This document shows positions 8,823 to 47,669 of a DNA stretch of 51,275 nucleotides, one piece after another. The stretch spans positions 1-51,275 of the IMG/VR virus record IMGVR_UViG_3300030107_006445; one strand, given 5' to 3'. Within the stretch, counting starts at the first letter, position 1; each line of letters begins with the position of its first letter. This DNA is from a virus. Under the pieces are notes generated by a model, which saw only the letters and a program-made list of their open reading frames with translations, was not told where the DNA came from and ran no database searches. Made by a program: the position numbers and the translations under genes.

Positions 8823-9467
8823 CTATTCAATTCTCAACCTCTGTTCTTGAGTTGATTCGGAATCACTTTGTTTCAAAGCTGTTCCTGCTCCTCCTGCTGC
8901 CAATTTACCTTTAATTGACCAAAGGAATGCACCCAATGCTGGAGCATATGGAATAACTCCACCTATCGCTGTCATGCCTATAACTCCAGGATCTGTAGGT
9001 GTTTCCTCTAATGGTGCGTCTGAATAGCCTATCCCATAAAGTGCTCCGGCTGCTCCACCTAACAAAGATTGCAATAAACGGCTTTTCCTGACTTTTTCTA
9101 CAGCTTCTGGTAAATATCTTCCCGCAGTTCTCCAACCAGCTGTTGCGACATTTGCTGCTCCTGCTGAGTCTGCTATAAGATCCGTCACTGGATATAACTC
9201 AGCGAATTCCTTATACTTAGCACGCTCTGCATCTCTGGCACTTTCGTAATCGCCTCCTGATAATTGTGAAATTCTACCGACGATCTCGTCAGAATAGCCT
9301 CCTGTCAAACCATGACCAAGAGACCTTGCTGTTCCATATAAATACTCAGAAGGAGACAAAGAACGATCTGTCAAACCATATTCTGCTCCTGAAGCTGCAA
9401 CTGTCGCTGAAGCTAATGCATCTGCAAGTTTGCTGTTTTCCCTGTTTTTAATGTATTTCCTAACCAC
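8823..9467 (-). CDS. Possible internal virion protein with Gly/Ala hydrophobic segments
   Basis: A 214-residue protein from a GTG start that overlaps the preceding stop by one base. Residues about 48-95 hold the pattern ARSLGHGLTGGYSDEIVGRI, then a GGDYESARDAERAKYKEFAE stretch. This pattern occurs in large ejection or internal proteins of many alphaproteobacterial phages. Residues about 130-190 contain two Gly/Ala-rich hydrophobic stretches that could insert in a membrane. It begins MVRKYIK, similar to the leader of the 'tagged' proteins. An ejection role is inferred. Confidence 0.5.
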   Translation of the reverse strand: MVRKYIKNRENSKLADALASATVAASGAEYGLTDRSLSPSEYLYGTARSLGHGLTGGYSDEIVGRISQLSGGDYESARDAERAKYKEFAELYPVTDLIADSAGAANVATAGWRTAGRYLPEAVEKVRKSRLLQSLLGGAAGALYGIGYSDAPLEETPTDPGVIGMTAIGGVIPYAPALGAFLWSIKGKLAAGGAGTALKQSDSESTQEQRLRIE

Positions 9468-10669: not shown

Positions 10670-10857
10670 ACTCTTCCTCCAGAAAGCTCTCTTGCTAGTA
10701 TTTGAAGAACTTCATTGAAACTTTTGTCAAGCTCCTTTGCTGCTCTGGCAAATTTTCTCGGACTTATTTCAGAGCTTTTTATGCCTCTGCGCTCTAAAAA
10801 ACTTTTTGCAGCTCTTATTTCTGCTGCTGCAACTTTTTTAATCGCTGCTCTGGCCAT
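10666..10857 (-). CDS. Small helical basic protein
   Basis: A 63-residue protein, almost entirely helical: an Ala/Lys/Arg-rich N-terminal helix (MARAAIKKVAAAEIRAAKSF) and a second helix, RKFARAAKELDKSFNEVLQI. An excellent ribosome site (AGGAGG, 5 bases before ATG) lies inside the end of the upstream gene, which it overlaps by 20 bases. Good translation signals support a real gene. Function unknown; it could be a minor packaged protein. Confidence 0.5.
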   Translation of the reverse strand: MARAAIKKVAAAEIRAAKSFLERRGIKSSEISPRKFARAAKELDKSFNEVLQILARELSGGRV

Positions 10858-11812
10858 TAATGCCTCCTAGTGCTCCGGCAACACCAACACCTCCAGTTAC
10901 ACTTGCCATTATGTTACCTGATTTTCTGTCTTCTGGGTTAAATTTTGCATAAACTGATCTAACATCGCCCTTATCTGGGTAAAAAAGAGCAGCCGTTCCT
11001 GCCTCATCAGTAAAATATCCTCTGAATCCTAGATTTTTCAAAGCAGTTTGTAACTCTGGGATCTCCAGCACCCTCCAAGAGCCTCTCTCGGCCCACTGCT
11101 CCAATGACCCACGTGGAAACTTTGGCATACTATGAATTATATTTTCTATTTGCGCTTTTTTCTCAGGATCAATGCTCCCCAATCTTTTTACATGCTCAGC
11201 ATTGTTAGGATCAAACAGCTTTTCCGTCTTTATTTTAACTGGGTAAATTGTTGTTCCTGGAATCATTGGGACATCATAGTCTGCTTCTAGCTCTCGCCCC
11301 ATTTTTGCCAGTTCGTAGGCTTCATCTTTGACCTTTTGCGTTGTGCTTTGTATTACTTCTGCGCTTCTAGAGGCAAAATTTGGGTTATTTTCAGCTTGTA
11401 TGATCCAACTAGCCAGTTCGTTCTCCATACGATCGAGGTCTTTGTTTGCTTGGATAAAATATTCCACTCTCTTCTTAGCTCGTGCACGATCCGACACAAT
11501 TTTGGCATAATCTTTTTGTCCTGGCTTGGGCATTGGTCCCTGCGTTTTCTCTAAAATTGCATCCGTCCATTCATCCATCATCCCTTTATTAATGTAATCC
11601 AAATAATAATCAGAGCTCGTAACGTAAGTCGCACCAAGGTGTGGGTGATATTGTTCAACACCTCCGAAAACAGAACGTGCTGTGGATGCTCTTGGATTAA
11701 ACACCTCTATTTCTGGGTTACGACTTACGTGATAATACGTTTTAGGATCGAACTCCTTTTTATATGCATCTCTTAATGAGCTTAATGCTCCTGAAATTAA
11801 TTTTCTCACCAT
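10838..11812 (-). CDS. ADP-ribosyltransferase-like protein with tagged N-terminus
   Basis: A 324-residue protein. Residues 1-24 (MVRKLISGALSSLRDAYKKE, then FDPK) match the leader shared by the 17,968-22,320 proteins. Residues 26-70 give KTYYHVSR with His28, then GATYVTSSDYYLDYI, like the first and second strands of ADP-ribosyltransferases, where a His and a Ser/Thr shape the NAD pocket. Residues about 261-295 (LGFRGYFTDEAG, then DVRSVYAKFNPED) match the last strands of phage 'polyvalent' ADP-ribosyltransferases. The catalytic Glu is not certain. A 30-residue Gly-rich hydrophobic tail follows. If active, it could modify host proteins after injection, as T4 Alt does; this is inference. Confidence 0.5.
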   Translation of the reverse strand: MVRKLISGALSSLRDAYKKEFDPKTYYHVSRNPEIEVFNPRASTARSVFGGVEQYHPHLGATYVTSSDYYLDYINKGMMDEWTDAILEKTQGPMPKPGQKDYAKIVSDRARAKKRVEYFIQANKDLDRMENELASWIIQAENNPNFASRSAEVIQSTTQKVKDEAYELAKMGRELEADYDVPMIPGTTIYPVKIKTEKLFDPNNAEHVKRLGSIDPEKKAQIENIIHSMPKFPRGSLEQWAERGSWRVLEIPELQTALKNLGFRGYFTDEAGTAALFYPDKGDVRSVYAKFNPEDRKSGNIMASVTGGVGVAGALGGINGQSSD

Positions 11813-11850: not shown

Positions 11851-12003
11851 CTACTTGTGAACCTTCTGAACTTCAAAAGACGCTTTCTTGCTGGCACCTT
11901 TGTGTGGTTTGTAGCCAGTTGAAGGATTCTTCATTAGCTTATAACCCTTGCCAGACTTCATCCAGTGATAACCTTCAGGAGCTTGTACTGCTTTTTTGGC
12001 CAT
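11851..12003 (-). CDS. Small basic protein, 50 residues (GYHWMKSGKGYKLM type)
   Basis: ATG at 12003 overlaps the stop of the next small gene (TAATG), and the stop TAG is at 11851. The sequence MAKKAVQAPEGYHWMKSGKG, then YKLMKNPSTGYKPHKGASKK, is a recognisable small phage protein type: an aromatic-basic beta hairpin followed by a Lys-rich end. Its partner (12003-12134) has a similar WGKSGKVYKTR hairpin, so they may be distant paralogues. Both lie between the tagged ADP-ribosyltransferase-like gene and the portal cluster. Role unknown; a DNA- or capsid-binding accessory is plausible. Confidence 0.6.
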   Translation of the reverse strand: MAKKAVQAPEGYHWMKSGKGYKLMKNPSTGYKPHKGASKKASFEVQKVHK

Positions 12004-12134
12004 TATTTCTTCTTCCTTTTCTTGTAACCCGAAGCGTGAATGGCTCGACCTTGTCGCTCTGCTTCAGCTCTGGTTTTGTAAACCTTGCCCGACTTGCCCC
12101 AACGATAACCACCTTTGACTTTTTGTACTGGCAT
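12003..12134 (-). CDS. Small basic protein, 43 residues (GGYRWGKSGKVYKTR type)
   Basis: ATG at 12134 overlaps the preceding stop (TAATG), and TAA lies at 12003-12005. The product starts MPVQKVKGGYRWGKSGKVYK, continues TRAEAERQGRAIHASGYKKR and ends in lysines. Small proteins of this type occur in many phages near head genes. Tight stop-start coupling on both sides shows it belongs to the operon. Function unknown. Confidence 0.65.
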   Translation of the reverse strand: MPVQKVKGGYRWGKSGKVYKTRAEAERQGRAIHASGYKKRKKK

Positions 12135-12616
12135 TATCGTTGTTTTGTTACCATTTGCCCATGAAGCATTTGGGTGTGCGGGTCGCTCAAAAATCTACCA
12201 ATTTCTTGGATAGTAGGATCAGAAGAATCCAGCATATCTTGTCCGACTTCCCAAACTTCGTCTGGATCCATGTAATTTTTGATAACCTTTAAATTTTGAA
12301 GATCATCTAGAACTCTTAAAAGAAGATTTTCATTAATCGGTTCTTCTTCGATCAAGCTCAAAAGATATTTTTCAGTTTCATAATCATCAAAGTCTCCTTT
12401 CGGGACGCTCAATGTTACATCTTCCTCGGTGATTCTTGGACCCAAAGATTCAAAATCCGCATCAAGATAATCTTCGGGCATAACTTGATATTTTCCACTA
12501 TACCTATTGCCTGTTTCTCCGATTATTTGGGCCTTGTTTACATCTTGCATGTCTAAGTGGTAAGGCAACTTGCCAAGTGCACCTTCTACAATCTTCCCAA
12601 GCATTTTTCTGGCCAT
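12134..12616 (-). CDS. Hypothetical acidic protein with leader-like N-terminus
   Basis: A 160-residue protein. It starts MARKMLGKIVEGALGKLP, close to the MVRKVIKSALEGL leader of the 18-22 kb proteins, and then becomes acidic and helical (ETEKYLLSLIEEEPINENLL). No enzyme motif is visible. Because it lies beside the portal cluster and carries the leader-like start, it may be another packaged protein. That rests on a short similarity only. Confidence 0.5.
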   Translation of the reverse strand: MARKMLGKIVEGALGKLPYHLDMQDVNKAQIIGETGNRYSGKYQVMPEDYLDADFESLGPRITEEDVTLSVPKGDFDDYETEKYLLSLIEEEPINENLLLRVLDDLQNLKVIKNYMDPDEVWEVGQDMLDSSDPTIQEIGRFLSDPHTQMLHGQMVTKQR

Positions 12617-12617
12617 T

Positions 12618-12899
12618 TTATCTACCCATTGGATTTAAGATTTCGTCCATCATGCCCTGCATATCGCCGCCTTTTAATTTGACGACTTTGACTTTCATAT
12701 CATCATCATGCATCGGCATTTCTTCTTCCTCGTAATCTTCCTCTTCATCGTAACCATACTCAGCCTTGTGGCACAAAAGCATAAAGTTCACAAGTTGCTC
12801 TTCGGTCATCTCTAGTCCAGCTGAGTCTGCTGGGAAGCCCATCTTTTGTTCAAAAAGTTGTACCAGCTCATCAATATTCTCTACATTAACGTTGGCCAT
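12618..12899 (-). CDS. Small acidic protein of unknown function
   Basis: A 93-residue protein. The N-terminal half is helical; residues 50-68 form a strongly acidic run (YDEEEDYEEEEMPMHDDD) followed by a short basic strand (KVKVVKLKGGD). It overlaps the next gene by 14 bases. An acidic head-assembly or DNA-mimic role is possible but unsupported. Confidence 0.5.
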   Translation of the reverse strand: MANVNVENIDELVQLFEQKMGFPADSAGLEMTEEQLVNFMLLCHKAEYGYDEEEDYEEEEMPMHDDDMKVKVVKLKGGDMQGMMDEILNPMGR

Positions 12900-13092
12900 A
12901 ATTAGATCCTTTCATTGCTTGTATGACGTTGTTTGTTGCGCTGTTACCGTTGATTCTTCCTCTGATCTCTTCAACTTTGTTCATCAGATAAACATTCATC
13001 TGGTCAGCCGACATTGGTTGGTCAGGCGATTGTTGTTGCACGCCAGAAAATGCCTGAGGATTAACTGGGCCAAACATAAACTCGTTATACAT
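12886..13092 (-). CDS. Small protein next to portal, unknown function
   Basis: A 68-residue protein with a Pro/Gln-rich start (NPQAFSGVQQQSPDQP) and one helix, ADQMNVYLMNKVEEIRGRI. It overlaps the portal stop by 8 bases, so it is co-translated. Nothing else can be said from the sequence. Confidence 0.48.
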   Translation of the reverse strand: MYNEFMFGPVNPQAFSGVQQQSPDQPMSADQMNVYLMNKVEEIRGRINGNSATNNVIQAMKGSNYGQR

Positions 13093-15643
13093 CAGATTGT
13101 TCTCTGTCTAATTGTATTTCAGCAGCATTCTTTTCACGTTCCATCTGCAAGTCAGCAGCACTTTTCTCTCTGTCCATCTGCAAGTCAGCAGCATTCTTTT
13201 CACGTTCCATCTGCATTTGCATCGCGTTCTTCTCACGCTCTATTTGCAATTCTGCTTGCAGTTCTACGATTTTCGCCTCTAGGTCTTTGTTTGCTTTGAT
13301 TTGATCGATTTGTATATCTGACTGGGCTTTAGCTTGGTCGATTTGTATATCTGATTGAGCTTTTGCTTGGTCAGATGCAATTTCTGACTGAGTCCTTTGG
13401 ACAAGTGATTGAGCTTCAAGTTCAGCGAGTTGTTGCGCATATTGTAACGGATCCTGTTGTTGTTGCTGTTGTTGTTGTCCAGCGATTGCTTGTATGGGTT
13501 GCATTTGCGGAGCTTGCTGGACGACTTGTGCTGCGCGAGAGCTTATTATCATATCCAGCTCTGGGTCAATGTCTTGGAACTGGAATTTTGGATCCCTCAG
13601 GTTAGGCACATCAGGCAACGGAACACCGATGCTGGCCTGCATGCGAGTCCGATAAAGCAACGCAATATGTTCCGCAATATGGGACAAGAGTATCGGTGCC
13701 ACTTGGCTACCCATAGTAGGATTGCCAGCCAAAGACGGATCGTTCAGAAACTGCATATGAACCATTATGTGCGAATCGTGGTCTTGCTCGGGGAATGCCT
13801 TGATTGCTTTGCCATACATGACCGTCATATTTTCATCTATCGGGTCAAGTCTTGGTGCTTCCTCGGGTGGCTTTAGAACTTCGTCTATATTAGGTATCCG
13901 AATCGCTTCATACATTCGCTTGTATGCTTCGTACAAGTCATGAAGTTCTGGTGCTGAACGAGCCATTTCCATAACTGCTTGAGCTTGTGCGATGCGTTGG
14001 GCTGTGCTAAAGATATTCGGATCACTAACTGGTACCACATCAATACGGCCATCAAAGTCTGCCGCATAAATGATTGTGTCTTGGCCTGATGCTGAGAACT
14101 CTATCTGCTCTGGTAAATTGTCAGCATTCAATTTGGCCAGCATTCTGAACTCTTGGCCTTGAGAGTTGTGCAAACGTTTGTGAATTGCGGAGAATGACTT
14201 ACTGCCTTGCTCAATCAGTGCCACCGTTGACCCGACTGGTGCATTAGGATTAACGTCGCCAACATTAAGATCTGCCGTGGCAGCAAACCTTCTACCAGCG
14301 TCAACCATAAATCCCATCAGCTGAAACAATGTTCCGCTTGGTTCTTTGAATGGTAGCGGCATGATTGCTTTGCCAACATCGTCAACCGTTGCCTCTAAGT
14401 CAACAAACTCTCCTGGATTGACTTCTATATCGCCACCGCTCACTCTGCCTTTTAGCTTGAAGCCACCTTGCATATTTGAAAATGCAGCAGAGTCCAGCAA
14501 CGCTCTCAAAGCACCAGTGGCTGCTTTACCCAAACCGCCAATCATATGGTACAGGCCAAAACCATAAAATCCAGTTCCAGGAAGGAATTTATAAGACACA
14601 AACCAGTCTAGCCGTTGTTGAGTTTCGTCTTGCTCGTCCCAGTTGCGGCGAACACTCACAATACGATCTGAGTCATAGTCAATCGTCACAACATACGGCA
14701 ACGCAACCACTTCATCATCCTCTTCCGAAGACATTCCATCAACGCCATCAAAAGTTTCATAAACATGCATCTCGATCAGCGTTATAATCTCGTCTTCCGA
14801 ATCATCAGCAGAAGGATCAACACCCTCAATGTCTTTGGTTGTATTGCCTGCTGGATCTATGCTTGAGCCAGAATACTTGACCGAGAGATAATATCCAGCT
14901 TCAACATATCGGTTGTAATCGTTGCGAGGCATCCGTATCAGATGTGAGTATCTTGGCGACGTTTGCAAGTCCTTGCTTTCTGGCGCAACAACGAAGTCCT
15001 CAGCCTTAACAAACTGTGAACATTGTCTGTTTAAGTTCACATCCCACCAGACCTTTTTAAATGTGTTGCCGACCAGTGGTAATTGAAACAACATCTGGTC
15101 TAGGTCAGGGAAGTATTCGGGCATCTCTTCTGTGATTTGGTAATTCATAAAATCACGTACACGTCTTGCCTGCTCTTCAACTTCTTCAGTCGCTTCACCA
15201 ACGATGGTTGTTTTAACTGGCCCACCAGAAGGATAAAGCTCGGCCACTGCTCTGGCATTAAACTGTGTTGCAGCTTCCGCAATCAATGGATGAACAATAG
15301 TGCTCAACCCACGGCTCGCTCTAATTTCCTCAGACTCTTGCAACCCACCTTCTGGGTCTAATGTCTTCAGCCCACTCTCATAACGACGTTTCCATTCGCT
15401 ACGAGCAGACTCGTCAAGTTCGTAAAATCTTAACAGTGTGGATGATTTGCGTTTGAGTTCGTTTTCATCAATGACTTCTGCTAAGTTTTGGTCAAACTGT
15501 GTTTCCTGTTCTTCAAGTCCATCCAAGTCTGGATCACCAATCAGCACATCTTCGCCAAAATTCTCAACCATAAGATCATCAGCAGGTGCTCCTTCCGAGA
15601 ACAACGGCAACTGTCTTGGGATTCCTAACTGCTCTTCAGCCAT
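13085..15643 (-). CDS. Portal protein (P22-type) with long helical tail
   Basis: An 852-residue protein directly after the large terminase gene (8-base overlap), the normal place for a portal. The region to about residue 690 has portal features: an N-terminal helical hairpin, LDESARSEWKRRYESGLKTL, repeated beta strands in the wing and stem (KVWWDVNLNRQCSQFVKAED), and the DLNVGDVNPNAPVGSTVALI segment. This matches the large P22-type portals of podoviruses, which form the dodecameric DNA gate and carry a barrel. Residues about 720-740 are a poly-Gln linker, and the last 90 or so residues are an 11-residue periodic helix that could form the internal barrel. Confidence 0.8.
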   Translation of the reverse strand: MAEEQLGIPRQLPLFSEGAPADDLMVENFGEDVLIGDPDLDGLEEQETQFDQNLAEVIDENELKRKSSTLLRFYELDESARSEWKRRYESGLKTLDPEGGLQESEEIRASRGLSTIVHPLIAEAATQFNARAVAELYPSGGPVKTTIVGEATEEVEEQARRVRDFMNYQITEEMPEYFPDLDQMLFQLPLVGNTFKKVWWDVNLNRQCSQFVKAEDFVVAPESKDLQTSPRYSHLIRMPRNDYNRYVEAGYYLSVKYSGSSIDPAGNTTKDIEGVDPSADDSEDEIITLIEMHVYETFDGVDGMSSEEDDEVVALPYVVTIDYDSDRIVSVRRNWDEQDETQQRLDWFVSYKFLPGTGFYGFGLYHMIGGLGKAATGALRALLDSAAFSNMQGGFKLKGRVSGGDIEVNPGEFVDLEATVDDVGKAIMPLPFKEPSGTLFQLMGFMVDAGRRFAATADLNVGDVNPNAPVGSTVALIEQGSKSFSAIHKRLHNSQGQEFRMLAKLNADNLPEQIEFSASGQDTIIYAADFDGRIDVVPVSDPNIFSTAQRIAQAQAVMEMARSAPELHDLYEAYKRMYEAIRIPNIDEVLKPPEEAPRLDPIDENMTVMYGKAIKAFPEQDHDSHIMVHMQFLNDPSLAGNPTMGSQVAPILLSHIAEHIALLYRTRMQASIGVPLPDVPNLRDPKFQFQDIDPELDMIISSRAAQVVQQAPQMQPIQAIAGQQQQQQQQDPLQYAQQLAELEAQSLVQRTQSEIASDQAKAQSDIQIDQAKAQSDIQIDQIKANKDLEAKIVELQAELQIEREKNAMQMQMEREKNAADLQMDREKSAADLQMEREKNAAEIQLDREQSDV
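13100..13390 (-). repeat. 33-bp tandem repeats encoding 11-residue helical repeats in portal tail
   Basis: Related units such as ccatctgcaagtcagcagca recur at 13141 and 13174, exactly 33 bases apart, and the pattern continues with drift. A second set with 33-base spacing encodes AKAQSDIQIDQ units around 13,310-13,370. All are in frame with the portal gene, giving hendecad (11-residue) coiled-coil repeats like MEREKNAADLQ. Such repeats can change copy number by slippage. Confidence 0.75.
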
Positions 15644-17141
15644 ACATGCTCATCCTATCTTGTGGGATTATGTCGTCTTCTTCGTAGTCAGTTGAGTGGC
15701 TGACAGACCAACTCTTGCGCAACCTCAACCATGCCTGTGTGCAAGTGTCAACAATGTCGTCATTATCGCCAGCAGGGAATGCCGCACAAATACTGATTAA
15801 ATCTTTTGCCCAATTACGTTCTGCGGGATACCATATACGGCCATCTTCCAGCAACGCAGACGAAGCATGGGCACGAGCTTCTTTATCTCTGTCTGGTAAA
15901 TACTCAAGAACTGGAATGCCAGCCATGCGTAAATCTTGCAACAAACTCTGGCCACTGGCTTTCTTTTCAATCAGCACTGCATCAGGCTCATAATCTTGGT
16001 ACGCCTCTTGAGCAAGTTTCCTCAATTCTGGATAGCTTACTCTATCGTACCACATTTCTAAAACAATTGCATTCATTTGACCATGTTTGCGAAACACAGC
16101 CCACGTGGTTCGGGCTGAATAAGAACTCTTTTCTTTGGTGGAAAAAGCAGTGTCGTACGACTGTAGCACATACTCAATGTTTGGCAGTTCTTTCTTGTCC
16201 CATGGCTTCCACCAGTCTTCTCTTAATATGCCGCCACCTTTAGGCATCGGTCGTTGCTGTAGCTGTCCAGCAGAAGCATACACTCCAAGACTTCGTTCGA
16301 GATTTTGTAATGTTCTATCGTCTATCCTTTCTGGCCAAAGAAGCTCATCTTCTTTTGTTCTTTTGTCTTTAAATCCTAACGAGGACTTGGTTTGGTATGG
16401 GTGATCCTGTTCATACCTAGCAGGCAAACACAAGTGATCCCAGTCTTCATGCTCATTGGCTAACACGTGCCCAGTTAGATCATTCTCATGAACACGTTGC
16501 ATGATTATTATGAAGGCACCAGTCTTTGGGTCATTAAGCCGAGTTTGCATGGCTTGATCCCACCACTCTAAAACGCCAACTCTAACGGTCTCAGACTCAG
16601 CCTCCCGAACATTGTGCGGATCATCAATTATAATGATGTCGCCACCTTCACCAGTCAACGCACCATCAACAGAAGTCGCTATCCTGTATCCTGTCTTGTC
16701 GTTTTCAAATCTTTGCTTTTGGTTCTGGTCAGAAGTCAGCTTAAACTGTTCGCCAAAGTGAGCTTGATACCAAGGACTGTCAATCAGCCTTCGACACTTC
16801 AACGAATCCCTAATAGACAAAGACAGCGCATAAGATGCAAACAAGAAACGTTTGTCTGGCTGGATGGTCCAAGTCCAAGCAGGCAACGCCACAGCAACAC
16901 TGATAGACTTCATGTGCCTTGGTGGGATGTTGATGATCAGTCGCTTTATGTCACCTTCAACAACTGCCTGCAAATGTTCAGACACCGCATCAATGTGCCA
17001 GTTGTCGTAAAACTGCCGTCCTGACTCAATCGTCTGCCAAGACTTCTTGGTAAACTCCTTCAGCGACCTCTTCATCTTCTCCGCTCGAACTTCCGTCAAT
17101 GACAGCGTGTTCAAGAACTCGTTCAATTGTGGTGAGGTCAT
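15636..17141 (-). CDS. terL: Terminase large subunit
   Basis: A 501-residue packaging motor. It has an ATPase domain with a Walker A variant, NIPPRHMKS (residues 71-79), Walker B DIIIIDDPHN (about 168-177) and a coupling segment, IIIMQRVHENDLTG. The C-terminal nuclease domain shows QSYDTAFS, VLIEKKASGQS and the acidic DNDDIVD; these three acidic positions are the usual RNaseH-like metal site. The first 116 bases overlap the small-terminase gene. A later ATG at 17075 would shorten that overlap to 50 bases and cannot be excluded. It would cut concatemers and drive DNA into the procapsid through the portal. Confidence 0.9.
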   Translation of the reverse strand: MTSPQLNEFLNTLSLTEVRAEKMKRSLKEFTKKSWQTIESGRQFYDNWHIDAVSEHLQAVVEGDIKRLIINIPPRHMKSISVAVALPAWTWTIQPDKRFLFASYALSLSIRDSLKCRRLIDSPWYQAHFGEQFKLTSDQNQKQRFENDKTGYRIATSVDGALTGEGGDIIIIDDPHNVREAESETVRVGVLEWWDQAMQTRLNDPKTGAFIIIMQRVHENDLTGHVLANEHEDWDHLCLPARYEQDHPYQTKSSLGFKDKRTKEDELLWPERIDDRTLQNLERSLGVYASAGQLQQRPMPKGGGILREDWWKPWDKKELPNIEYVLQSYDTAFSTKEKSSYSARTTWAVFRKHGQMNAIVLEMWYDRVSYPELRKLAQEAYQDYEPDAVLIEKKASGQSLLQDLRMAGIPVLEYLPDRDKEARAHASSALLEDGRIWYPAERNWAKDLISICAAFPAGDNDDIVDTCTQAWLRLRKSWSVSHSTDYEEDDIIPQDRMSMYG

Positions 17142-17761: not shown

Positions 17762-17971
17762 TTAAAAAGTTGCTGTTGTTTGCCTCACCCACCTCGGCTC
17801 ACAATGAGCCTTAACCGGATGCCTGCTGCGAATGTCGTAGTTGCTTCTGCCCTGATAATTTAACCTTTTGGCTGTAATGGTACAGTGTTTTAGTTTTGAA
17901 AAATAAATCGGGTCTTGACCTCGGATGGGGTCACCATTAGATAACACAACCAGTAAGTAAACCAGCTTCAT
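17762..17971 (-). CDS. Small protein with hydrophobic N-terminus, possibly exported
   Basis: A 69-residue protein. It begins MKLVYLLVVLSNGDPIRGQD: a single Lys, then a short hydrophobic stretch, then a polar body with two cysteines (KHCTIT and KAHCEPRW). It resembles small phage proteins with weak signal peptides; the cysteines could form a disulphide outside the cytoplasm. The hydrophobic run is short, so export is uncertain. It overlaps the ADP-ribosyltransferase-like stop by 4 bases (ATGA). Confidence 0.5.
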   Translation of the reverse strand: MKLVYLLVVLSNGDPIRGQDPIYFSKLKHCTITAKRLNYQGRSNYDIRSRHPVKAHCEPRWVRQTTATF

Positions 17972-18525
17972 CTTAGTTTTACAGTTTTGAAAATACGAAT
18001 TTCTGAAGCATCCTCGACATCATCTGGGTTGAGGTGTTTATAAAAATATCTTATTTTTAATTCCTCATAATTTGGATGTCGAATGCCATCATACCCAGCA
18101 GCCAAAGCAGCTGTTTCATCCTGCCCTAACTCATTCCAAATTTTACGGCCTTGCTCTGTTTCAATATCTATTACTTTAAAAGGCCCAATGGCTTCATACA
18201 CTCGGCCTTCTGGTTTGTCTCCTAACTCTCCTCTGGTAAAAGATTTTGAAAGCACTGGGTCATCGCTTAAATGTACCGATGGATCATGAGCACCTTTTGT
18301 TCTTCCTATGCTTTTACTACTGGTGGTGCTTACTTCTGTGAGATCAGTTTGCGGAGATCCATGATATAGTCGATCAAATTCTACAACACCCTCAACGTCA
18401 GTTGTTTTAGCAGCCGACTTCCTTAACTGCTTAGCTCCTTTGGGCAATGCTCCAACTGCAGCTTTACGTTTTGGATCGAATCCAGCCAATCCTTCTAAGG
18501 CACTTTTAAGAACTTTCCTTACCAA
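17968..18525 (-). CDS. ADP-ribosyltransferase-like protein with tagged N-terminus
   Basis: A 185-residue protein from a TTG start at 18525. Residues 1-40 (MVRKVLKSALEGLAGFDPKR, then KAAVGALPKGAKQLRK) align with the leaders of its neighbours but lack the ILKGTA hydrophobic core. The body has ADP-ribosyltransferase-like marks: RLYHGSP with His55, VHLSDDPVLSKSFT (84-97), a strand GRVYEAIGPFKVIDIE, and AAGYDGIRHPNYEELKIRYF (about 142-160), as in phage polyvalent enzymes of this fold. Glu154 or Glu155 may be catalytic. If packaged and injected it could act early on host proteins. Activity is not proven by the sequence. Confidence 0.55.
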   Translation of the reverse strand: MVRKVLKSALEGLAGFDPKRKAAVGALPKGAKQLRKSAAKTTDVEGVVEFDRLYHGSPQTDLTEVSTTSSKSIGRTKGAHDPSVHLSDDPVLSKSFTRGELGDKPEGRVYEAIGPFKVIDIETEQGRKIWNELGQDETAALAAGYDGIRHPNYEELKIRYFYKHLNPDDVEDASEIRIFKTVKLR

Positions 18526-18541
18526 CTAACTTTCCTCTGCT

Positions 18542-19690
18542 TCATTTAGTATATTTTTTGACAAGCTCTGCTTTATACGCTTCAGGATCTTGCCGTGCTA
18601 ATTCTACTTTTCTAGCAGCCTCTTCAACTTGTGCTCTTAATCGAGGCACATTCTCTAGTGCTTCTACTGCTTTTGGCGTTGGGACGTCGTCAGGCAGGTC
18701 TTGGTAGATAACTTTGTTCTTCCTTAAATAATCAGCCAGTTCTTGTTTGCTCAGCCCATAGTCTCGCATCATAGATTCAAGAAAGCTCGCATAGTCTGCA
18801 TATTCTGGACTATCCCCATCAAGGTTCCAACCCTCAAGTCCATCATCCGCTGCTCCTCTGAGCGGGACTTTACCTTCAAACCAAGGCTCTAATTTTGCCC
18901 TTTCCCAAATATCATCCTTAGTAAATTGAATTTCATAAGAAGGATCGGCTTCTCTTGCTTTCTTCATTACATCTAGTGCTTTTGAAGCATCATCAGCATC
19001 CATCCACTTAGCAACTTCATCGCTTTCCAACAGCTCCCAACTCCAGTCTTTGAAATTTACCAGTCTTGTTGGCATCCTTTCCATGGCATCAAACTGATCT
19101 ATCATACTATCAAATTCTCTCGCAGGAGCATCTGTAGGGAGCTTCTGGTCTCTTGCTAATTCGTCCCACTCCTCCGGAGAAGACTTAAAAAAATCTTTCC
19201 ATCTTTGATTGTGTTCAGCCAAATCTTCAACCGTCAGCCCACTTGATGCATATTTTTCATCATAATCAGACTTTATCAAAGGAGTAGAATCTATGAATTC
19301 TTCAGCAACCTCGTCAAAACTTTTCCCAGTTGCTTCCATTTTATTTTGAATGGATTTGTTTAGTATTCTGTGGACGTCTTTTGTGGAGAAAATTCTCTGA
19401 AGATCATCATCATCATCATAGTATGCTGCAGCGTCATGAAAATCTCTCGAAAAAATGTTGGCTCTGAATGTTTTGCGGAAAAATTCTTCCTGCAAAGATT
19501 TGAATGCAGGCACGTCTTTTATGTTTTCCGGCAACTTTTTAGCAACCGACTTCATGAGCATCTTAGCCCCTTTGGGCAATGCAGCCAACGCTCCAACTGC
19601 AGCTGTACCTTTTAATATCTTCCTACGCTTCTCGTCAAATTTGCCGCCAGTCAATCCCTCTAAGGCACTTTTGATAACTTTCCTTACCAT
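18542..19690 (-). CDS. Tagged paralogue A: leader plus large acidic helical domain
   Basis: A 382-residue protein. It has the leader MVRKVIKSALEGLTGGKFDE, then KRRKILKGTAAVGALAALPK (about residues 21-40), followed by an acidic helical body. Two segments match paralogue C (20,603-21,703): NKMEATGKSFDEVAEEFI and MMRDYGLSKQELADYLRKNK. This shows duplication of the whole gene, not only of the leader. No catalytic motif is recognised. The RRxxLK-GTAAxGALAALP leader looks like a Tat export signal or a packaging tag. Confidence 0.55.
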   Translation of the reverse strand: MVRKVIKSALEGLTGGKFDEKRRKILKGTAAVGALAALPKGAKMLMKSVAKKLPENIKDVPAFKSLQEEFFRKTFRANIFSRDFHDAAAYYDDDDDLQRIFSTKDVHRILNKSIQNKMEATGKSFDEVAEEFIDSTPLIKSDYDEKYASSGLTVEDLAEHNQRWKDFFKSSPEEWDELARDQKLPTDAPAREFDSMIDQFDAMERMPTRLVNFKDWSWELLESDEVAKWMDADDASKALDVMKKAREADPSYEIQFTKDDIWERAKLEPWFEGKVPLRGAADDGLEGWNLDGDSPEYADYASFLESMMRDYGLSKQELADYLRKNKVIYQDLPDDVPTPKAVEALENVPRLRAQVEEAARKVELARQDPEAYKAELVKKYTK

Positions 19691-20602
19691 TTAATCAATG
19701 TTCTCTCTTAGGCCAAAAAATGGGCTTATTTCAGAATCTTTCTGTCTTTGAAAAGTTTCCTCCCAAGCCTTCTTCTCAGCTTCTCTGTCTACCAAGTGTA
19801 ATTCATTCCAATTTGCTGGACGAACTGTATCGACAAACGTTTTATCAAAATCGCCAGAAAGAAGACGTGACGTTTCTTCCATACTATCTACACTTGCCTC
19901 CATATAATCAAAAACATCAGCACGACTCATGTTGTAAGGTTCGAGAGATTTTATGTACTCGATCAAATCAGGATCATCAATTTCATTTAACGTTATTTTT
20001 CCATCAACCCAATCATCAAGCGATTTATTTTCATAAAACGAATGCAACTTAGACCTCATCCCTGCATCAACAAGCCTCCCTGCATCCATTGGATCGCCTG
20101 TCCCTGCATCAAAGAATCCAGAAACCTTCTCGCCTTCTAACTCACCCACCTCAGCAGTGACTCTGTCTTCCAGGAGACGCATTGCTTGTGGAGTGTTCAC
20201 GTCTTTTAAAATCTCTGGACGAAGCAGCTCCTGAGCAAGTTCGTTTTCATCAAGACCACTCAACCCAAGTTCTTCCAGACTTTTTCCTGTTCGTTTGCTA
20301 ACCTGTGCAGCAATGGCGTCCAGCTCCATTGGATCGAAGCCGATTCTCTTATCTATATTCCTAACAGCGTTATCAAACGCCTGATCATAAAGGTCTTTCT
20401 TAAAATTGATAAAATAAGGAGATTCATGAAATGGTCCAACAGGAATTTTCGTCAATTCATCAGCTGCAGGTTTCATAGCTATCTTAGCTGCTTTGGGCAA
20501 TGCTGCTAATGCCCCTGCTGCGGCTGTACCTTTTAATATCGCTCTGCGTTTTGGATCAAACGCACCACCGAGCGCACCAGCAATCTTCTGTCTGATTTTC
20601 AT
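19691..20602 (-). CDS. Tagged paralogue B: leader plus unrelated helical body
   Basis: A 303-residue protein. It has the same leader type (MKIRQKIAGALGGAFDPKRR, then AILKGTAAAGALAALPKAAK) but a body that does not obviously match paralogues A or C. The body is acidic and helical, for example LEELGLSGLDENELAQELL. It directly abuts paralogues A and C with no gap. Function unknown. Its value is as evidence that the leader is attached to different domains. Confidence 0.55.
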   Translation of the reverse strand: MKIRQKIAGALGGAFDPKRRAILKGTAAAGALAALPKAAKIAMKPAADELTKIPVGPFHESPYFINFKKDLYDQAFDNAVRNIDKRIGFDPMELDAIAAQVSKRTGKSLEELGLSGLDENELAQELLRPEILKDVNTPQAMRLLEDRVTAEVGELEGEKVSGFFDAGTGDPMDAGRLVDAGMRSKLHSFYENKSLDDWVDGKITLNEIDDPDLIEYIKSLEPYNMSRADVFDYMEASVDSMEETSRLLSGDFDKTFVDTVRPANWNELHLVDREAEKKAWEETFQRQKDSEISPFFGLRENID

Positions 20603-21703
20603 CTAATCCTCAAAAATATAATCGAACATTTGTTGGTCAACATTTGCATCTTTTGATCCTTGTGGTTTTGCGGTAGATATATTCGCTAAATCAAGCTCTT
20701 TTTTTATTGCTTCTGCATCTTCTGCAAGCTCAACAATTTTAGGCATTGGCGCATCTTCAGCCAGATGTGTATAAATGACGTTGTTTTCCCGTAAATACTC
20801 AGCCAGTTGCTGTTTGTTAAGTCCATAATCTTCCATCATGTTTGCAACAAATTTGTAAAGATCTACTCTGTTATTCAAATTATGATCTTGCCACTCACCC
20901 ATATCTGTAAAAGATCTTTCCCCTTCAAGCCACTCTTCTATTCTCGGTGTATCAATAAGTCCAGTGCCATCTTCAGTGTCACCAAAAAGATCTGTTTTCG
21001 GATCAGGAACCCAAGCATTACTCATATAATCAGGGTCAATTTCTTTTGCTTTGTGAACTTTTTCAAATGCATCCGTCCACTCATCACCGTCAGCCCACTT
21101 GATGACCTCATCATTCATCAGAAGTCTGTGATTCTGCCTCCAATGAGCAGACTTGTGAAGAGCACTGTCTAATAACTCTTCATAATCTTCCTCTGTCCCA
21201 CTTAGCAATTTGCGATAATATGGTTTGTTTTCTACCCACTCATTTTCTTTATTACGCATTTGATATTCAATGTCTTTCAATTCATCAGCGTTATAAAGAA
21301 AATCATCCAGAACTTCGTCAGAGCTTTGACCAGTTGCTTTCATTTTATTTTTCATTGCGTTCTGGTAAATCCTTCTAATATCTTCTGCTGAAAAAATTTC
21401 AAAATCAATCTCGCCATCTTCCCAGTAGACATTTCTAAATTCTTCACTGCCATGACGATAACGAGGATTCATCAAAAATTTAAACGTACCACGCAAAGCA
21501 TCTCTTTCTAAGACCTTGAATGGTTTTGCATTTTGTATGTTTTTCGGCAACTGTTTAGCAACCGTTCCCATTAACTTTTTAGCTCCTTTGGGTAATGCGG
21601 CCAATGCCCCTGCAGCTGCAGTCCCTTTCAGTATCGCTCTGCGTTTTGGATCAACCTCTCCACCTGTCAACTTATCTAATGCACCGCCAATAAGTTTTTT
21701 CAT
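20603..21703 (-). CDS. Tagged paralogue C: leader plus large acidic helical domain
   Basis: A 366-residue protein. Leader MKKLIGGALDKLTGGEVDPK, then RRAILKGTAAAGALAALPKG, and a body homologous to paralogue A: NKMKATGQSSDEVLDDFL matches its NKMEATGKSFDEVAEEFI, and MMEDYGLNKQQLAEYLRENN matches its MMRDYGLSKQELADYLRKNK. The C-terminus is variable. A 4-base ATGA overlap links it to the next gene upstream. Unknown role; most likely virion or early-injected, if the leader is a packaging tag. Confidence 0.55.
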   Translation of the reverse strand: MKKLIGGALDKLTGGEVDPKRRAILKGTAAAGALAALPKGAKKLMGTVAKQLPKNIQNAKPFKVLERDALRGTFKFLMNPRYRHGSEEFRNVYWEDGEIDFEIFSAEDIRRIYQNAMKNKMKATGQSSDEVLDDFLYNADELKDIEYQMRNKENEWVENKPYYRKLLSGTEEDYEELLDSALHKSAHWRQNHRLLMNDEVIKWADGDEWTDAFEKVHKAKEIDPDYMSNAWVPDPKTDLFGDTEDGTGLIDTPRIEEWLEGERSFTDMGEWQDHNLNNRVDLYKFVANMMEDYGLNKQQLAEYLRENNVIYTHLAEDAPMPKIVELAEDAEAIKKELDLANISTAKPQGSKDANVDQQMFDYIFED

Positions 21704-22320
21704 TTTGCAACGCCTTTTGACCCGTCGGGAAGTGTTACTTCAAGACCTTCATATCTTCCGAGCACATCTCGAAGATACATTGATATCTCTTTGTTGGAGT
21801 ATCCACTTTGTTTCATTTCATCTATAAAATTGTCAACAAAACTGAACTCGCTTACCTCTTTTGTTGGAACTGATTTAGCAACATAATCCTCAATAGGCAT
21901 TTCATCAAAAACCTGATCTAAAAATGGCAATAATTCCTGTTCTGCCTCAGCACTTCCTGGAGCGTTGAAATAGCTATCATAAATTTTATCTAGCTCTTTG
22001 GGATTAAGTTCTGAAACAGATTTTACTTCTCTGCCTATGTCTTCTGAAATCTCATCAAGGAATATTTGCTCCTCTAATATATTCTCATCCAAAAGAACTT
22101 TTTTCATTTGTGGGAGGTCTGTGATTTGTTTTGCTGCCATTTTTGACAAATCAATTTTTTTCGAAAAAGGTTCGCCAACTTCATCAATCACTTTCCGAGC
22201 AACTTTTGGTGTGACAGCAATCGCCCCCAATGCTCCTGCACCTTTTATAAGGTCACGTTTGCTTGGGTCAACTTCTCCACCCATCAGCTTGTCTAATGCT
22301 CCACTGATAAGTTTTTTCAT
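21700..22320 (-). CDS. Tagged paralogue D: leader plus short acidic domain
   Basis: A 206-residue protein. The ATG at 22320 overlaps the stop of the upstream gene (ATGA), which fixes the start. The leader is weaker: MKKLISGALDKLMGGEVDPS, then KRDLIKGAGALGAIAVTPKV. The twin Arg becomes KR and the hydrophobic core changes. The rest is acidic and helical, with GYSNKEISMYLRDVLG resembling the YGLSKQELADYLRKN element of paralogues A and C. This end element may mark a shared fold. Confidence 0.55.
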   Translation of the reverse strand: MKKLISGALDKLMGGEVDPSKRDLIKGAGALGAIAVTPKVARKVIDEVGEPFSKKIDLSKMAAKQITDLPQMKKVLLDENILEEQIFLDEISEDIGREVKSVSELNPKELDKIYDSYFNAPGSAEAEQELLPFLDQVFDEMPIEDYVAKSVPTKEVSEFSFVDNFIDEMKQSGYSNKEISMYLRDVLGRYEGLEVTLPDGSKGVAK

Positions 22321-22505
22321 TGCGCACCTCGTTCTGTTATCCATACTTTAGCTTGTTTCTCAGCGGATTTAAACTCTTCATGGAACTCCACATCAGGCAA
22401 ATACACCTCCTCATTCTCAGGTCCATACATGAGCACTTTGTAGTGTCCGCCTGACATCTCCACGGTCGCCTTGCGGCGACCATTCTCGTAAGTCTTCTTT
22501 TTCAT
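22317..22505 (-). CDS. Small protein of unknown function
   Basis: A 62-residue protein from ATG 22505, two bases after the preceding stop. It has a basic start (MKKKTYENGRRKATVEMSGG) and a hairpin-like YKVLMYGPENEEVYLPDVEF, and ends in a charged helix. Another in-frame upstream ATG exists inside the neighbour but would give a long overlap. Function unknown. Confidence 0.5.
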   Translation of the reverse strand: MKKKTYENGRRKATVEMSGGHYKVLMYGPENEEVYLPDVEFHEEFKSAEKQAKVWITERGAQ

Positions 22506-44224: not shown

Positions 44225-45407
44225 CTTTCAAATACCATTTGTCCAGAGCTCTTACCTGATATTTTGTGTCAAGTTCAGCACCTCTTTGCCTCAGGAGGGC
44301 TTGTCTGCCAGCAGGATCTAATCTATTGTACTTTGCTATAAACTCAGGATCGCGCTTTATTTGCTCAAACTCTTCGCTCGCTTTGTTTCTTATGTAGTCT
44401 CTGAACTGAGTATTAAACTCAGGTGTTTTCCTCCATTCCCGCTGCAGATTTTGAGAAGACTCTATAGAGTCGTACCATGCTTCGCCTTTTGCATCCCTAT
44501 ATTCTCGAGCAAAATCTCCAAAAGCACTCTGTCTTTCAGCAGCAAAAGTCATCATTTGTATAAGCAGTCTGTTTCCGTCTGTGGTTCGCGATAGCTGAGG
44601 TGCTATGGATTCCAAAAAATTCAATTCTTTCTCAGATATAGCACCAGTCATTTTTTTAACTGAAGCAAGAACTATCTCATTAGCTTTTGATCGGAATACG
44701 TCTCTGTCGCGCAGATCTGCTTTGTCTACATTTATTCCAAGCTCCCCTCCTATTCTCCGGAAAGGCTCGAAAAATTCGCTGACTGGGCCAGTTTCTCCTA
44801 TTCTTTCTAAGAGAGTAGCCATGTCTTTCAAAGATTGAAGTGTTTCGCCAGCTTGTCTTGCGTTACCGATCTGTTCTGCGATGTCATCTGCCAGAACAGT
44901 ACCAACTCTTTGTTTGTAACTTTTGTCTCCTCCCAAATCTATAGAAGTTGAAGCTGAGGAAGGACCAGTAAATGTTTTTAGTACTGTCCCGTCCGGTCTA
45001 TAAACCGTCCACTCAAACATTGGTTTACCGTCCGGACCAAGTATAGGTTCCCCTGCATCGTCTGTCGCCATTCCTGTTTTTACAGTTTTGGGAGTCCCTT
45101 CTTTGGGCTTCATTAGTGAAGCAATCTGTAAGCCAATCAGAGGCTCCTGTTGTTTCCTCTGTTTTTCTTTAAGAGCGTGTTTTTCTAGATATTTAGCTGG
45201 GGCTGAGAGTGCGCTTGTCGCCGACCCAAAAGCTGTTGCTCCTGGTCTTGAGGCTTCTTCGCCCATTTTCGAGAAATATTGAAGAGCCAGCAACGGAAGA
45301 TCCGGAGGAGCTTCTGGTCTTGATATAACCTTTGCCAACTTCATAGCCTGTTCAAAGTCTGTCTTACCGAGATTGGCTAGTGCTCCTGTTGTTGTTGGTA
45401 ATGCCAT
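44217..45407 (-). CDS. Internal virion protein-like, unknown function
   Basis: A 396-residue, largely helical protein. Segments: DFEQAMKLAKVISRPEAPPD, DDIAEQIGNARQAGETLQSL, KMTGAISEKELNFLESIAPQ and a long C-terminal charged helix. This resembles an internal or ejection-type protein of short-tailed marine phages. The stop overlaps the next start by 8 bases. Catalytic activity is not indicated. Confidence 0.52.
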   Translation of the reverse strand: MALPTTTGALANLGKTDFEQAMKLAKVISRPEAPPDLPLLALQYFSKMGEEASRPGATAFGSATSALSAPAKYLEKHALKEKQRKQQEPLIGLQIASLMKPKEGTPKTVKTGMATDDAGEPILGPDGKPMFEWTVYRPDGTVLKTFTGPSSASTSIDLGGDKSYKQRVGTVLADDIAEQIGNARQAGETLQSLKDMATLLERIGETGPVSEFFEPFRRIGGELGINVDKADLRDRDVFRSKANEIVLASVKKMTGAISEKELNFLESIAPQLSRTTDGNRLLIQMMTFAAERQSAFGDFAREYRDAKGEAWYDSIESSQNLQREWRKTPEFNTQFRDYIRNKASEEFEQIKRDPEFIAKYNRLDPAGRQALLRQRGAELDTKYQVRALDKWYLKDE

Positions 45408-45420
45408 TTATAAAGCTCCT

Positions 45421-46287
45421 CTATGCTTTAGCAAGTGCATATGCACTACCCAAAGTCCCCAGTGCACCGATCGTTTGCCCATAGATGCTAGGCTGTGGCA
45501 TAAATTGATTGGCCAGCTGCATACCATATTGCGAAGTGTCGTACGGCAATCCCTCTAGTGCACCCATAGCAAAGTTCAACTGCTGGTAAGGATATTGGCG
45601 TTGATCTGTGTAATCGGAATACGCCATGTCTAAAGCTCTTTGATCCAGAACTCTTCGGGCTTCACCTGCCGTTATTAAACCTGCTGCTGCTTGCTGTTGT
45701 AAATCTTGCACCAACGGAGCAAAAGTTTGCATCTGAGCAGCTCGTTGCTGAGCAAGTCCTAATCCTTGCATTGCTGCTCGGCTACGAACGTCTCCCATTG
45801 CCTGCATTGCCTGCCCAGTGGTTTCTCCTTCTCTTAGCCCTAATCTGCTCCCGCCAAACGCACCCGCTCTAGCTGCTGCTGCACGATTTGTGACTTGATC
45901 TCGCTCTAGTTGTTCTCGGATTTCTCTTATCGCTGGATCTGCTGCTGCCTGAGCAATGTCTATATAAGGCTGAGACTCGGTTATGTTGGAGGTTGCATCC
46001 CATGCTGCATCTAAATAGGGCTGATAGCCAGTGCTGGCGTCTCGCAATATGCTGTGTGCTTCTCGCTCGTCCGCAGTTAATTTTAATGGATTTCCACTAG
46101 CATCAGTTCCATAAGTCGCTATCCGTGGGCCAGTATAAGCCGGATATGGGGAACTGGCTAACTCTGCAGCCTCTCCATAAAGTTGCTGGCCAGCTGCAGA
46201 AACCCAACTAGGGATTTGAGTCCCTGCAATCGTTTCTGTAGGATCTGGAAGAACATCAACTCCGCTTTCAAACAGTCCGCTTCCCAT
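45421..46287 (-). CDS. Ejection / internal virion-like protein with AAARAGAFGG motif
   Basis: A 288-residue, Ala/Gln-rich helical protein. Residues about 125-160 read REQLERDQVTNRAAAARAGA, then FGGSRLGLREGETTGQAMQA, a pattern common in phage DNA-ejection or tail-associated proteins. Later, RVLDQRALDMAYSDYTDQRQ leads to a YPYQQLNFAMGALEGLPYDT end. It is likely a component released with DNA. Function is inferred from the pattern and position. Confidence 0.58.
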   Translation of the reverse strand: MGSGLFESGVDVLPDPTETIAGTQIPSWVSAAGQQLYGEAAELASSPYPAYTGPRIATYGTDASGNPLKLTADEREAHSILRDASTGYQPYLDAAWDATSNITESQPYIDIAQAAADPAIREIREQLERDQVTNRAAAARAGAFGGSRLGLREGETTGQAMQAMGDVRSRAAMQGLGLAQQRAAQMQTFAPLVQDLQQQAAAGLITAGEARRVLDQRALDMAYSDYTDQRQYPYQQLNFAMGALEGLPYDTSQYGMQLANQFMPQPSIYGQTIGALGTLGSAYALAKA

Positions 46288-46676
46288 TAAACTATCCCGC
46301 CTAATGCGCCCATTTCATCTGCCGGCATTCCTTCATCACCAATCATGTCTATAATAGACTGGAGTTCCGGAAGTAGTTTCACCAGAGCTTTAGCAACATC
46401 AGGAGTTATAGCAGCATCCAAAAGCTCTAAATCTTCTGGAGCCATCGCTGATAACCTAGTGGCAATAATAGCTGTCACATCAGGATCTGGAGCCATCATA
46501 GCTTCTGTTGCAATAGATTCTGGAGCCAGCTCTGGCGGCATCGCTTGTGGCGGTAACGCACCTTGCATCTCTGGCGGCATCGCCTCGGGTGGCATCGCTT
46601 GTGGCGGCATCGCACCTTGCATCTCTGGCGGCATCGCCTCGGGTGGCATTGGAGCCATCATATCTTGTTCTGCCAT
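46287..46676 (-). CDS. Acidic protein with Met-Pro-rich repeats
   Basis: A 129-residue protein. ATG 46676 follows GGAGG by 6 bases; an ATG 12 bases earlier is less likely. The N-terminus repeats MPPEAMPPEMQGAMPPQ units from a 54-bp DNA duplication, then an acidic helical domain (PEDLELLDAAITPDVAKALV) and an acid tail. The repeats are probably extended and flexible. It may act as a virion linker or chaperone for ejection proteins. Unknown family. Confidence 0.5.
   Translation of the reverse strand: MAEQDMMAPMPPEAMPPEMQGAMPPQAMPPEAMPPEMQGALPPQAMPPELAPESIATEAMMAPDPDVTAIIATRLSAMAPEDLELLDAAITPDVAKALVKLLPELQSIIDMIGDEGMPADEMGALGGIV
46537..46649 (-). repeat. 54-bp direct duplication encoding Met-Pro-rich repeat
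   Basis: Two copies of a unit beginning ggcatcgcttgtgg, starting at 46537 and 46591, differ by a few bases. The 54-base period is 18 codons, in frame. Confidence 0.75.
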
Positions 46677-46715
46677 TTCAACCTCCATTAAAAAACATTA
46701 TACCTTATTTACAAA

Positions 46716-47669
46716 TTAGAAGAACAGCTTGGAAGCAAAATTGCCAATCCAAGAAAGTTCTGCGGGCAAAAACGAATTTATAGCATGTCTTGTTAGGGCT
46801 GACGATCCTGCATTTTTAACTGCTTTCTTCACATTGTCTCCCGCAGCCAATCTAGAAATAACATCCACTCCTGCACCAGCAGCAGTAGCCATCACTCTGT
46901 TCCTGTTTACGAATTTCTCACCGACCCTTCTTGCTCGCTCCATCGTCGATGGAGCTTGTGTTATGGCACTGTCAAAATCTTCTTGGCCAACTTTAGAAAA
47001 AGTTGGATACGAAAGAGATGTTCCTGGAATATTCAAAGTTGGATCTGAGCCCAAAGTTGTCCCACTAGTAACAACACCATCTTCTAAAAGCCCAGCCTTG
47101 CTAAGCTGATCAAAATCTTGCTCCATTCCAAAACTTGTTGCCAATTCTCTATTGGCTAATTCAGGAACGTAAAATTGCCCAGCAGCAAGACCGTCGTCAG
47201 CAAGTTTATAGCCAGCCGACTTAGATGCCTCAAGAGCTTGTGATGGTAGTTGGCCAAAAGTTTCTTTCGCTCCTGCTAACAACCTTTGTCCTGCTGACCT
47301 GTCTTGAAGTGCAGGATCTAAATAACCAGTGACCATTTGCTCTACTGCCTGAATGGCTACCATAGGGATTACACCTTTGGTTATGATTTCAGACACAGAC
47401 GGCAAATTAGGATTTGATCCCTCTTGCGCTTCTAATTCTTGCTTTGCTTGTTCATAACTTTCCAGAAACGCTTGGTCTCTAGGGTCAGCTGGATTATATT
47501 TCCTGTCACCTGTTTGTACACGGTCAACGAACTGGAATTGCGGCATAGCACCAGTGCCATAAACGTTCTGCAGTTGTGCCGGATCAATATTCGGAGTAAA
47601 AGTACTCGTTTGATAAACAGGATATCTGTCCTCTCCTGTCAGTCCTGTCAATGCACCAGCCTCAGCCAT
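46716..47669 (-). CDS. Internal virion protein-like, unknown function
   Basis: A 317-residue protein. The N-terminus is polar with aromatic residues (DRYPVYQTSTFTPNIDPAQL). The middle includes LPSVSEIITKGVIPMVAIQA, a hydrophobic stretch, and the C-terminus is helical with RRVGEKFVNRNRVMATAAGA. It could be membrane-active during ejection. Its start overlaps the next gene by 8 bases. Function unknown. Confidence 0.5.
   Translation of the reverse strand: MAEAGALTGLTGEDRYPVYQTSTFTPNIDPAQLQNVYGTGAMPQFQFVDRVQTGDRKYNPADPRDQAFLESYEQAKQELEAQEGSNPNLPSVSEIITKGVIPMVAIQAVEQMVTGYLDPALQDRSAGQRLLAGAKETFGQLPSQALEASKSAGYKLADDGLAAGQFYVPELANRELATSFGMEQDFDQLSKAGLLEDGVVTSGTTLGSDPTLNIPGTSLSYPTFSKVGQEDFDSAITQAPSTMERARRVGEKFVNRNRVMATAAGAGVDVISRLAAGDNVKKAVKNAGSSALTRHAINSFLPAELSWIGNFASKLFF

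What the first reader, a model, noticed from the sequence alone, without database searches (positions are those of the whole stretch)
17968..22320. A shared N-terminal leader joins unrelated phage proteins
Five consecutive genes (starts at 18525, 19690, 20602, 21703 and 22320) begin with a basic amphipathic helix, most followed by DPKRR-x-ILKGTAAxGALAALPKGAK, but carry different bodies. Three more genes in the structural block (10838-11812, 12134-12616 and weakly 8823-9467) start MVRK or MARK with similar helices. A leader attached to different domains in one operon is what a sorting signal looks like. The place among head genes suggests packaging into the capsid; a Tat-type export signal is the main alternative. 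I know of no described phage system with this exact set.
Basis: partly seen in the sequence, partly recalled or inferred. Interest (0 to 1): 0.8.

Follow-up and report, generated by a model that had tools for sequence, protein, structure and literature searches.

The report
Shared terminal tag on phage cargo proteins
A marine phage related to the Roseobacter phages CRP-901/902 puts one short N-terminal tag on several neighbouring proteins, and a tiny 'GAL' motif inside that tag recurs near the ends of many unrelated structural-block proteins across its relatives, which looks like an address label for loading effector proteins into the virus head.

Summary
The leader is real, but the reading changes. 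Genes 18542, 19691, 20603 and 21700 mostly belong to one diverged family; in its relatives the 'RRxILKGTAAAGALAALPK' part is an internal segment (residues 141-191), so a Tat export peptide is unlikely. Gene 17968 carries a shortened copy of the leader (81% nt identity to 18542's) on an unrelated body. About 160 IMG/VR relatives and the cultured Roseobacter phages CRP-901/902 show the general rule: structural-block proteins carry a short GAL(xx[LIM]P) motif near either terminus, in 34 of 78 families versus 3 of 91 others (p=7e-11), falling from 8.1 per 1000 residues at the ends to about 1 inside. Carriers include ART-PolyVal and PBECR5 effectors, a GNAT acetyltransferase and the window's DNA ejection protein homologue; head protein, portal, terminase and tail adaptor have no terminal copy. 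CRP-902 puts its own leader, MANP[VI]KGA[IL], on a nuclease and an acetyltransferase. Best explanation: a capsid-cargo tag that works like the T4 capsid-targeting sequence, without claim of membership. No virion proteomics was available, so packaging is inferred; the held-out replication was weak. New variant of a known kind.

The parts
18403..18525 (-). leader (41 aa, TTG start) of gene 17968-18525, shortened version with GALPKGAK; body ART-like by sequence motif only
   Evidence: hhalign to the ART family alignment is weak
19532..19690 (-). leader (53 aa) of gene 18542-19690; RR-GAL module from residue 22
20453..20602 (-). leader (50 aa) of gene 19691-20602; GAL at residues 9 and 30
21548..21703 (-). 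leader (52 aa) of gene 20603-21703; GAL at residues 7 and 32
22165..22320 (-). leader (52 aa) of gene 21700-22320 (the ORF finder starts at 22344); KR instead of RR
18542..19690 (-). paralogue of 20603-21703; member of the RR-module family
20603..21703 (-). paralogue of 18542-19690; member of the RR-module family
11753..11812 (-). N-terminal helix MVRKLISGALSSLRDAYKKE of gene 10838-11812 (ART-PolyVal family)
10838..10945 (-). C-terminal tail of the same protein with GALGGINGQSSD; a tail GAL or GSL is present in 8 of 10 family members
12563..12616 (-). N-terminal helix MARKMLGKIVEGALGKLP of gene 12134-12616
45366..45407 (-). N-terminal GALANL (residue 8) of gene 44217-45407, next to the ejection protein homologue
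45451..45468 (-). C-terminal GALGTL (residue 274 of 288) of the DNA ejection protein homologue 45421-46287
   Evidence: phrog_4287, E=1.5e-9
46293..46310 (-). C-terminal GALGGI (residue 127 of 133) of gene 46287-46688
47640..47657 (-). N-terminal GALTGL (residue 5) of gene 46716-47669

Best explanation
The leader is the local form of a cargo-loading tag used by this phage family. Shown: a short GAL(xx[LIM]P) motif lies near the N- or C-terminus of many otherwise unrelated proteins of the structural gene block, often on an N-terminal amphipathic helix or after a short Ala-rich stretch, and it is found on predicted effector domains and on a DNA ejection protein homologue. Inferred: the motif is bound by the scaffold, portal or inner capsid face during head assembly, so that tagged proteins are enclosed with the DNA and later ejected into the host, where the ART, nuclease or acetyltransferase bodies act early in infection. 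The twin-arginine stretch is a conserved, usually internal segment of one cargo family that became N-terminal in the window's copies, and is probably not an export signal.
For: Terminal GAL in 34/78 block families vs 3/91 other families (p=6.6e-11); density 8.1/1000 within 15 residues of an end, 0.7-1.8/1000 beyond 60 residues, 0.58 in other proteins; AGL, GLA, LAG, LGA and GSL not enriched. In window, CRP-901 and CRP-902 GALs lie in late genes (22, 21, 14) and hardly in early ones (1, 1, 1). Carriers: ART-PolyVal family (PF18760 in 6 of 10 members, best 2.5e-18); PBECR5 nucleases of L074 and L078 with N-terminal GALs and CRP-902 gp65 with a C-terminal one; GNAT protein CRP-902 gp68; DNA ejection protein homologue. 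In CRP-902 one leader, MANP[VI]KGA[IL]xx[LI]G, sits on the PBECR5 nuclease and the GNAT protein. Same body with another leader: L137 versus CRP-902 gp65/gp66. Leaders of 17968 and 18542: 81% nt identity, 25 of 32 shared residues with the same codon. RR module internal at residues 141-191 in relatives. ARTs encoded near head genes are predicted to be head-packaged (PMC9503650).
Against: No proteomics, no binding partner, no structure of the tag in complex. The motif was found in the data used to test it; the held-out test is small (4/19 families, p=0.016), and there the anagrams ALG and LGA reach 3/19 each. ALG is also raised in the main test (15/78 vs 5/91, p=0.006), perhaps through overlap with GALG. 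Fewer than half of block families carry the motif. Within-genome leader similarity is a tail effect driven by a few genomes (whole-distribution p=0.22). Some block genes in relatives have Sec-type N-termini (L033, L134), so the block is not purely interior proteins.
Confidence: 0.58

Rival explanations
1. The RRxILKG leader is a Tat export signal that sends the proteins to the host periplasm or inner membrane, for example to block superinfection.
For: RRx[FI]LK followed by an uncharged stretch matches the Tat consensus; Pfam TAT_signal scores 20.6 bits; SRREFLK-type versions occur in L099, L082, L101 and L161, all in the block (9/255 block vs 0/1191 other proteins).
Against: Below Pfam's cut-off of 22.7. 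In more than ten relatives the same segment lies 141-191 residues inside the protein, and in HTVC027P gp42 at about residue 730. 17968 lost RRxIL and 21700 has KR. No consistent AxA cleavage site by eye.
Confidence: 0.13
2. The leader is a membrane-active helix of ejected proteins that helps them or the DNA cross the cell envelope, with no role in loading.
For: Amphipathic N-terminal helices (hydrophobic moment up to 0.63); Ala/Gly-rich segment flanked by basic residues; presence on an ejection protein homologue.
Against: Maximum 19-residue hydropathy is only -0.1 to 1.1 in the window leaders. General membrane affinity does not explain a specific tripeptide at N- or C-terminal tails of enzymes.
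Confidence: 0.15
3. The leaders only reflect tandem duplication of one gene family with a slowly evolving N-terminus, and the GAL enrichment reflects undetected common ancestry or composition of block proteins.
For: 18542 and 20603 are paralogues, and 19691 and 21700 are linked to the same family. Leaders are better conserved than bodies.
Against: GAL enrichment counts families once, is concentrated at termini, and is weaker or absent for anagrams of the same composition. It is found on ART, PBECR5, GNAT and ejection protein families. In CRP-902 one leader is on two different enzyme folds.
Confidence: 0.14

Closest known systems
T4 capsid-targeting sequence (CTS) of internal proteins and Alt
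   Same: Short N-terminal targeting stretch shared by otherwise highly diverse internal proteins, including an ADP-ribosyltransferase; ensures incorporation into the prohead (PMC3012670; PMC5694885).
   Different: No Peptidase_S78 prohead protease found in the window, CRP-901, CRP-902 or HTVC027P; motif GAL; often C-terminal; smaller phages with a Mu gpT-like head protein.
Polyvalent and MuF-linked effectors (ART-PolyVal, PBECR)
   Same: Same effector domains near terminase and portal genes, predicted to be head-packaged and injected (PMC5512222, PMC9503650).
   Different: Here each effector is a separate small protein with a short tag; no MuF fusion.
Encapsulin targeting peptides
   Same: Short terminal peptide with small residues and Leu/Ile that loads cargo into an encapsulin shell (GSLxIGSLK, TVGSL; PMC10960027).
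   Different: GAL instead of GSL (terminal GSL not enriched), frequent N-terminal location, no evidence of binding to the capsid protein. A resemblance only.
SPN3US gp53/gp54
   Same: Diverged head proteins with 15 identical N-terminal residues in a giant phage (PMC5694885).
   Different: Two paralogues cleaved by a prohead protease, not a set of unrelated folds.

Membership tests
T4-type capsid-targeting sequence | short N-terminal stretch shared by otherwise unrelated proteins | tested here: met
   CRP-902 leader on PBECR5 and GNAT proteins; window leader on 17968 and the RR family
T4-type capsid-targeting sequence | removed by a prohead protease | tested here: inconclusive
   no Peptidase_S78 in four genomes; other protease families not searched with their own models
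T4-type capsid-targeting sequence | required for entry into the prohead | not testable with these tools
   needs virion proteomics and mutants
Tat signal peptide | twin-arginine motif | tested here: inconclusive
   RR in three window genes, KR in 21700, RK in 17968
Tat signal peptide | located at the N-terminus | tested here: not met
   internal at residues 141-191 in relatives and about 730 in HTVC027P gp42; N-terminal only in the window copies and some relatives
Tat signal peptide | reaches the Pfam PF10518 cut-off | tested here: not met
   best 20.6 vs 22.7 bits
Encapsulin targeting peptide | GSL-type C-terminal motif | tested here: not met
   terminal GSL not enriched; GAL instead
Encapsulin targeting peptide | binds the luminal face of the shell | not testable with these tools
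   no complex prediction or binding assay available
MuF-fused effector | MuF domain in the same polypeptide | tested here: not met
   no such Pfam match in ten block proteins
ART-PolyVal (gene 10838) | match to PF18760 | tested here: inconclusive
   6 of 10 members of its family match, best 2.5e-18; 10838 itself is linked only through these homologues

The most novel reading that the evidence does not exclude
A whole marine phage family marks its interior proteins with a transferable GAL-type terminal tag read by the head itself, analogous to encapsulin targeting peptides, so that the motif alone predicts which unknown genes are injected effectors.
Probability: 0.3. Interest if true: 0.85.

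Novelty: new variant of a known kind. Interest (0 to 1): 0.62.

Why it matters
If right, a very short tag lets one predict from sequence which anonymous genes of an abundant ocean phage group are packaged and injected into the host, which is unknown for most phage genes, and it offers a short tag for loading other proteins into phage heads. [quoted passage not shown]

Tried and rejected
Searches for the full 20603 protein, the leader alone and the 17968 protein in INPHARED, and for 20603, the leader and the 17968 body in IMG/VR, found no relatives. NCBIfam and PHROGs gave nothing useful for the leader genes. AlphaFold2 models of 10838 (pLDDT 68) and 17968 (pLDDT 55) were too weak; Foldseek and VIA-align returned helical matches to the insert of 10838 or chance hits, so no ART fold was shown by structure. 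GSL as the motif was tested and rejected. A whole-distribution test of within-genome leader similarity was not significant, although high-scoring pairs (score 30 or more) were commoner within genomes (6.3% vs 0.8%).

Full report
Context. The window is a virus record of 51,275 bases. Its large terminase is about 75% identical to those of Roseobacter phages CRP-901 and CRP-902, its head protein 84-85%, and the gene order around terminase, portal, GroES and head protein is shared. Two scans of IMG/VR, with terminase and head protein, gave 160 related loci, some from the same contigs.

The leader. Five adjacent genes begin with related leaders. Leaders are 32-78% identical, bodies 19-33% in forced global alignment. 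The closest leader pair is 17968 and 18542: 78% amino acid and 81% nucleotide identity, 25 of 32 shared residues with the same codon, on bodies without BLAST similarity. This looks like transfer of a leader onto another body. The other four are mostly one family: 18542 and 20603 are paralogues (E=2e-30 for bodies), 21700 matches the L107 protein that also has an RR segment, and 19691 is linked mainly through the leader with weak body similarity.

The RR segment. In relatives of this family a segment of the form RRxFxxGxAAxPxxAGALSxLPxxK lies at residues 141-191 (L013, L023, L027, L029, L049, L052, L064, L070, L112, L153, L154). The window copies, and L161, L099, L082 and L101, have an RR segment near the N-terminus. 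A similar segment is internal in HTVC027P gp42, encoded between terminase and portal, and in proteins of other contigs (L090-L094, L096). It looks like a Tat motif, but its position argues against a signal peptide, and the Pfam score stays below the cut-off.

The motif that is really shared. Reading N-termini across relatives suggested a GAL tripeptide. Counted by family, terminal GAL (first 60 or last 40 residues) occurs in 34 of 78 block families and 3 of 91 others (p=6.6e-11). AGL, GLA, LAG, LGA, GAV, GAI and GSL show no enrichment; ALG shows a lesser one (15/78 vs 5/91), perhaps because GALG contains it. Density falls from 8.1 per 1000 in the outer 15 residues to about 1 per 1000 inside. 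GAL is the most enriched tripeptide in the N-terminal 60 residues. In the window, CRP-901 and CRP-902 the motif is in late genes (22, 21 and 14 occurrences) and nearly absent from early ones (one each). In the core family next to GroES, 14 of 22 distinct members carry GAL or GSL in the last 35 residues (11% expected), and 8 of 10 members of the ART family do (10% expected). The motif was chosen on these data. A held-out set of 19 families without homologues in the first set gave 4 with terminal GAL (p=0.016 against the non-block families), including two neighbouring L206 proteins that end GALPKGVQ and GALPKGAQ; anagrams ALG and LGA reached 3 each there, so this replication is weak.

What is tagged. 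The family of 10838 matches ART-PolyVal. PBECR5 nucleases of L074 and L078 have GAL leaders close before the catalytic domain, and CRP-902 gp65, also PBECR5, has a C-terminal GAL. CRP-902 gp68 is a GNAT acetyltransferase. CRP-902 gp65, gp66, gp68 and gp72 share MANP[VI]K, while L137 has homologues of gp65 and gp66 with other leaders. The window's DNA ejection protein homologue has GAL 15 residues from its end. Head protein, portal, terminase and tail adaptor have none near their ends.

Mechanism. Shown: distribution, positions and carriers. Inferred: the tag is bound inside the growing head, and the cargo is enclosed and ejected with the DNA. T4 is the functional model: diverse internal proteins with only the capsid-targeting sequence in common (PMC3012670). 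Membership in that family is not claimed: no Peptidase_S78 was found, and if the reading is right the motif also works at the C-terminus. Encapsulin targeting peptides (PMC10960027) are a second functional parallel, a lead only. Predicted packaging of ART and PBECR effectors encoded near head genes is established in the literature as a prediction (PMC5512222, PMC9503650), but no passage read there describes a short shared tag.

Noticed in passing
L180 (HTVC027P) 11953-16084 and 39165-40184: Pelagibacter phage HTVC027P proteins gp41, gp42 and gp82 carry GGR[VI][GN]-type short motifs, possibly that phage group's own short tag.
   Followed up: partly
L090, L091, L092, L093, L094, L096: DPxRRxFxKG-type segments with an Ala-rich stretch occur inside proteins of other viral contigs (residues 37 to 552).
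   Followed up: partly
window 11273-11614 (residues about 67-180 of gene 10838): The window's ART-family protein has a long helical insert that its relatives lack.
   Followed up: no
L033 15123-15695, L134 1110-1727: Block genes of some relatives encode proteins with Sec-type hydrophobic N-termini, so exported proteins also occur there.
   Followed up: no
window 8823-9467: Gene starting MVRK without a terminal GAL, in about the same position as CRP-902 gp63; not analysed further.
   Followed up: no
L206 14362-17581: Two neighbouring proteins without detected homology end in GALPKGVQ and GALPKGAQ, matching the window leader's GALPKGAK.
   Followed up: partly
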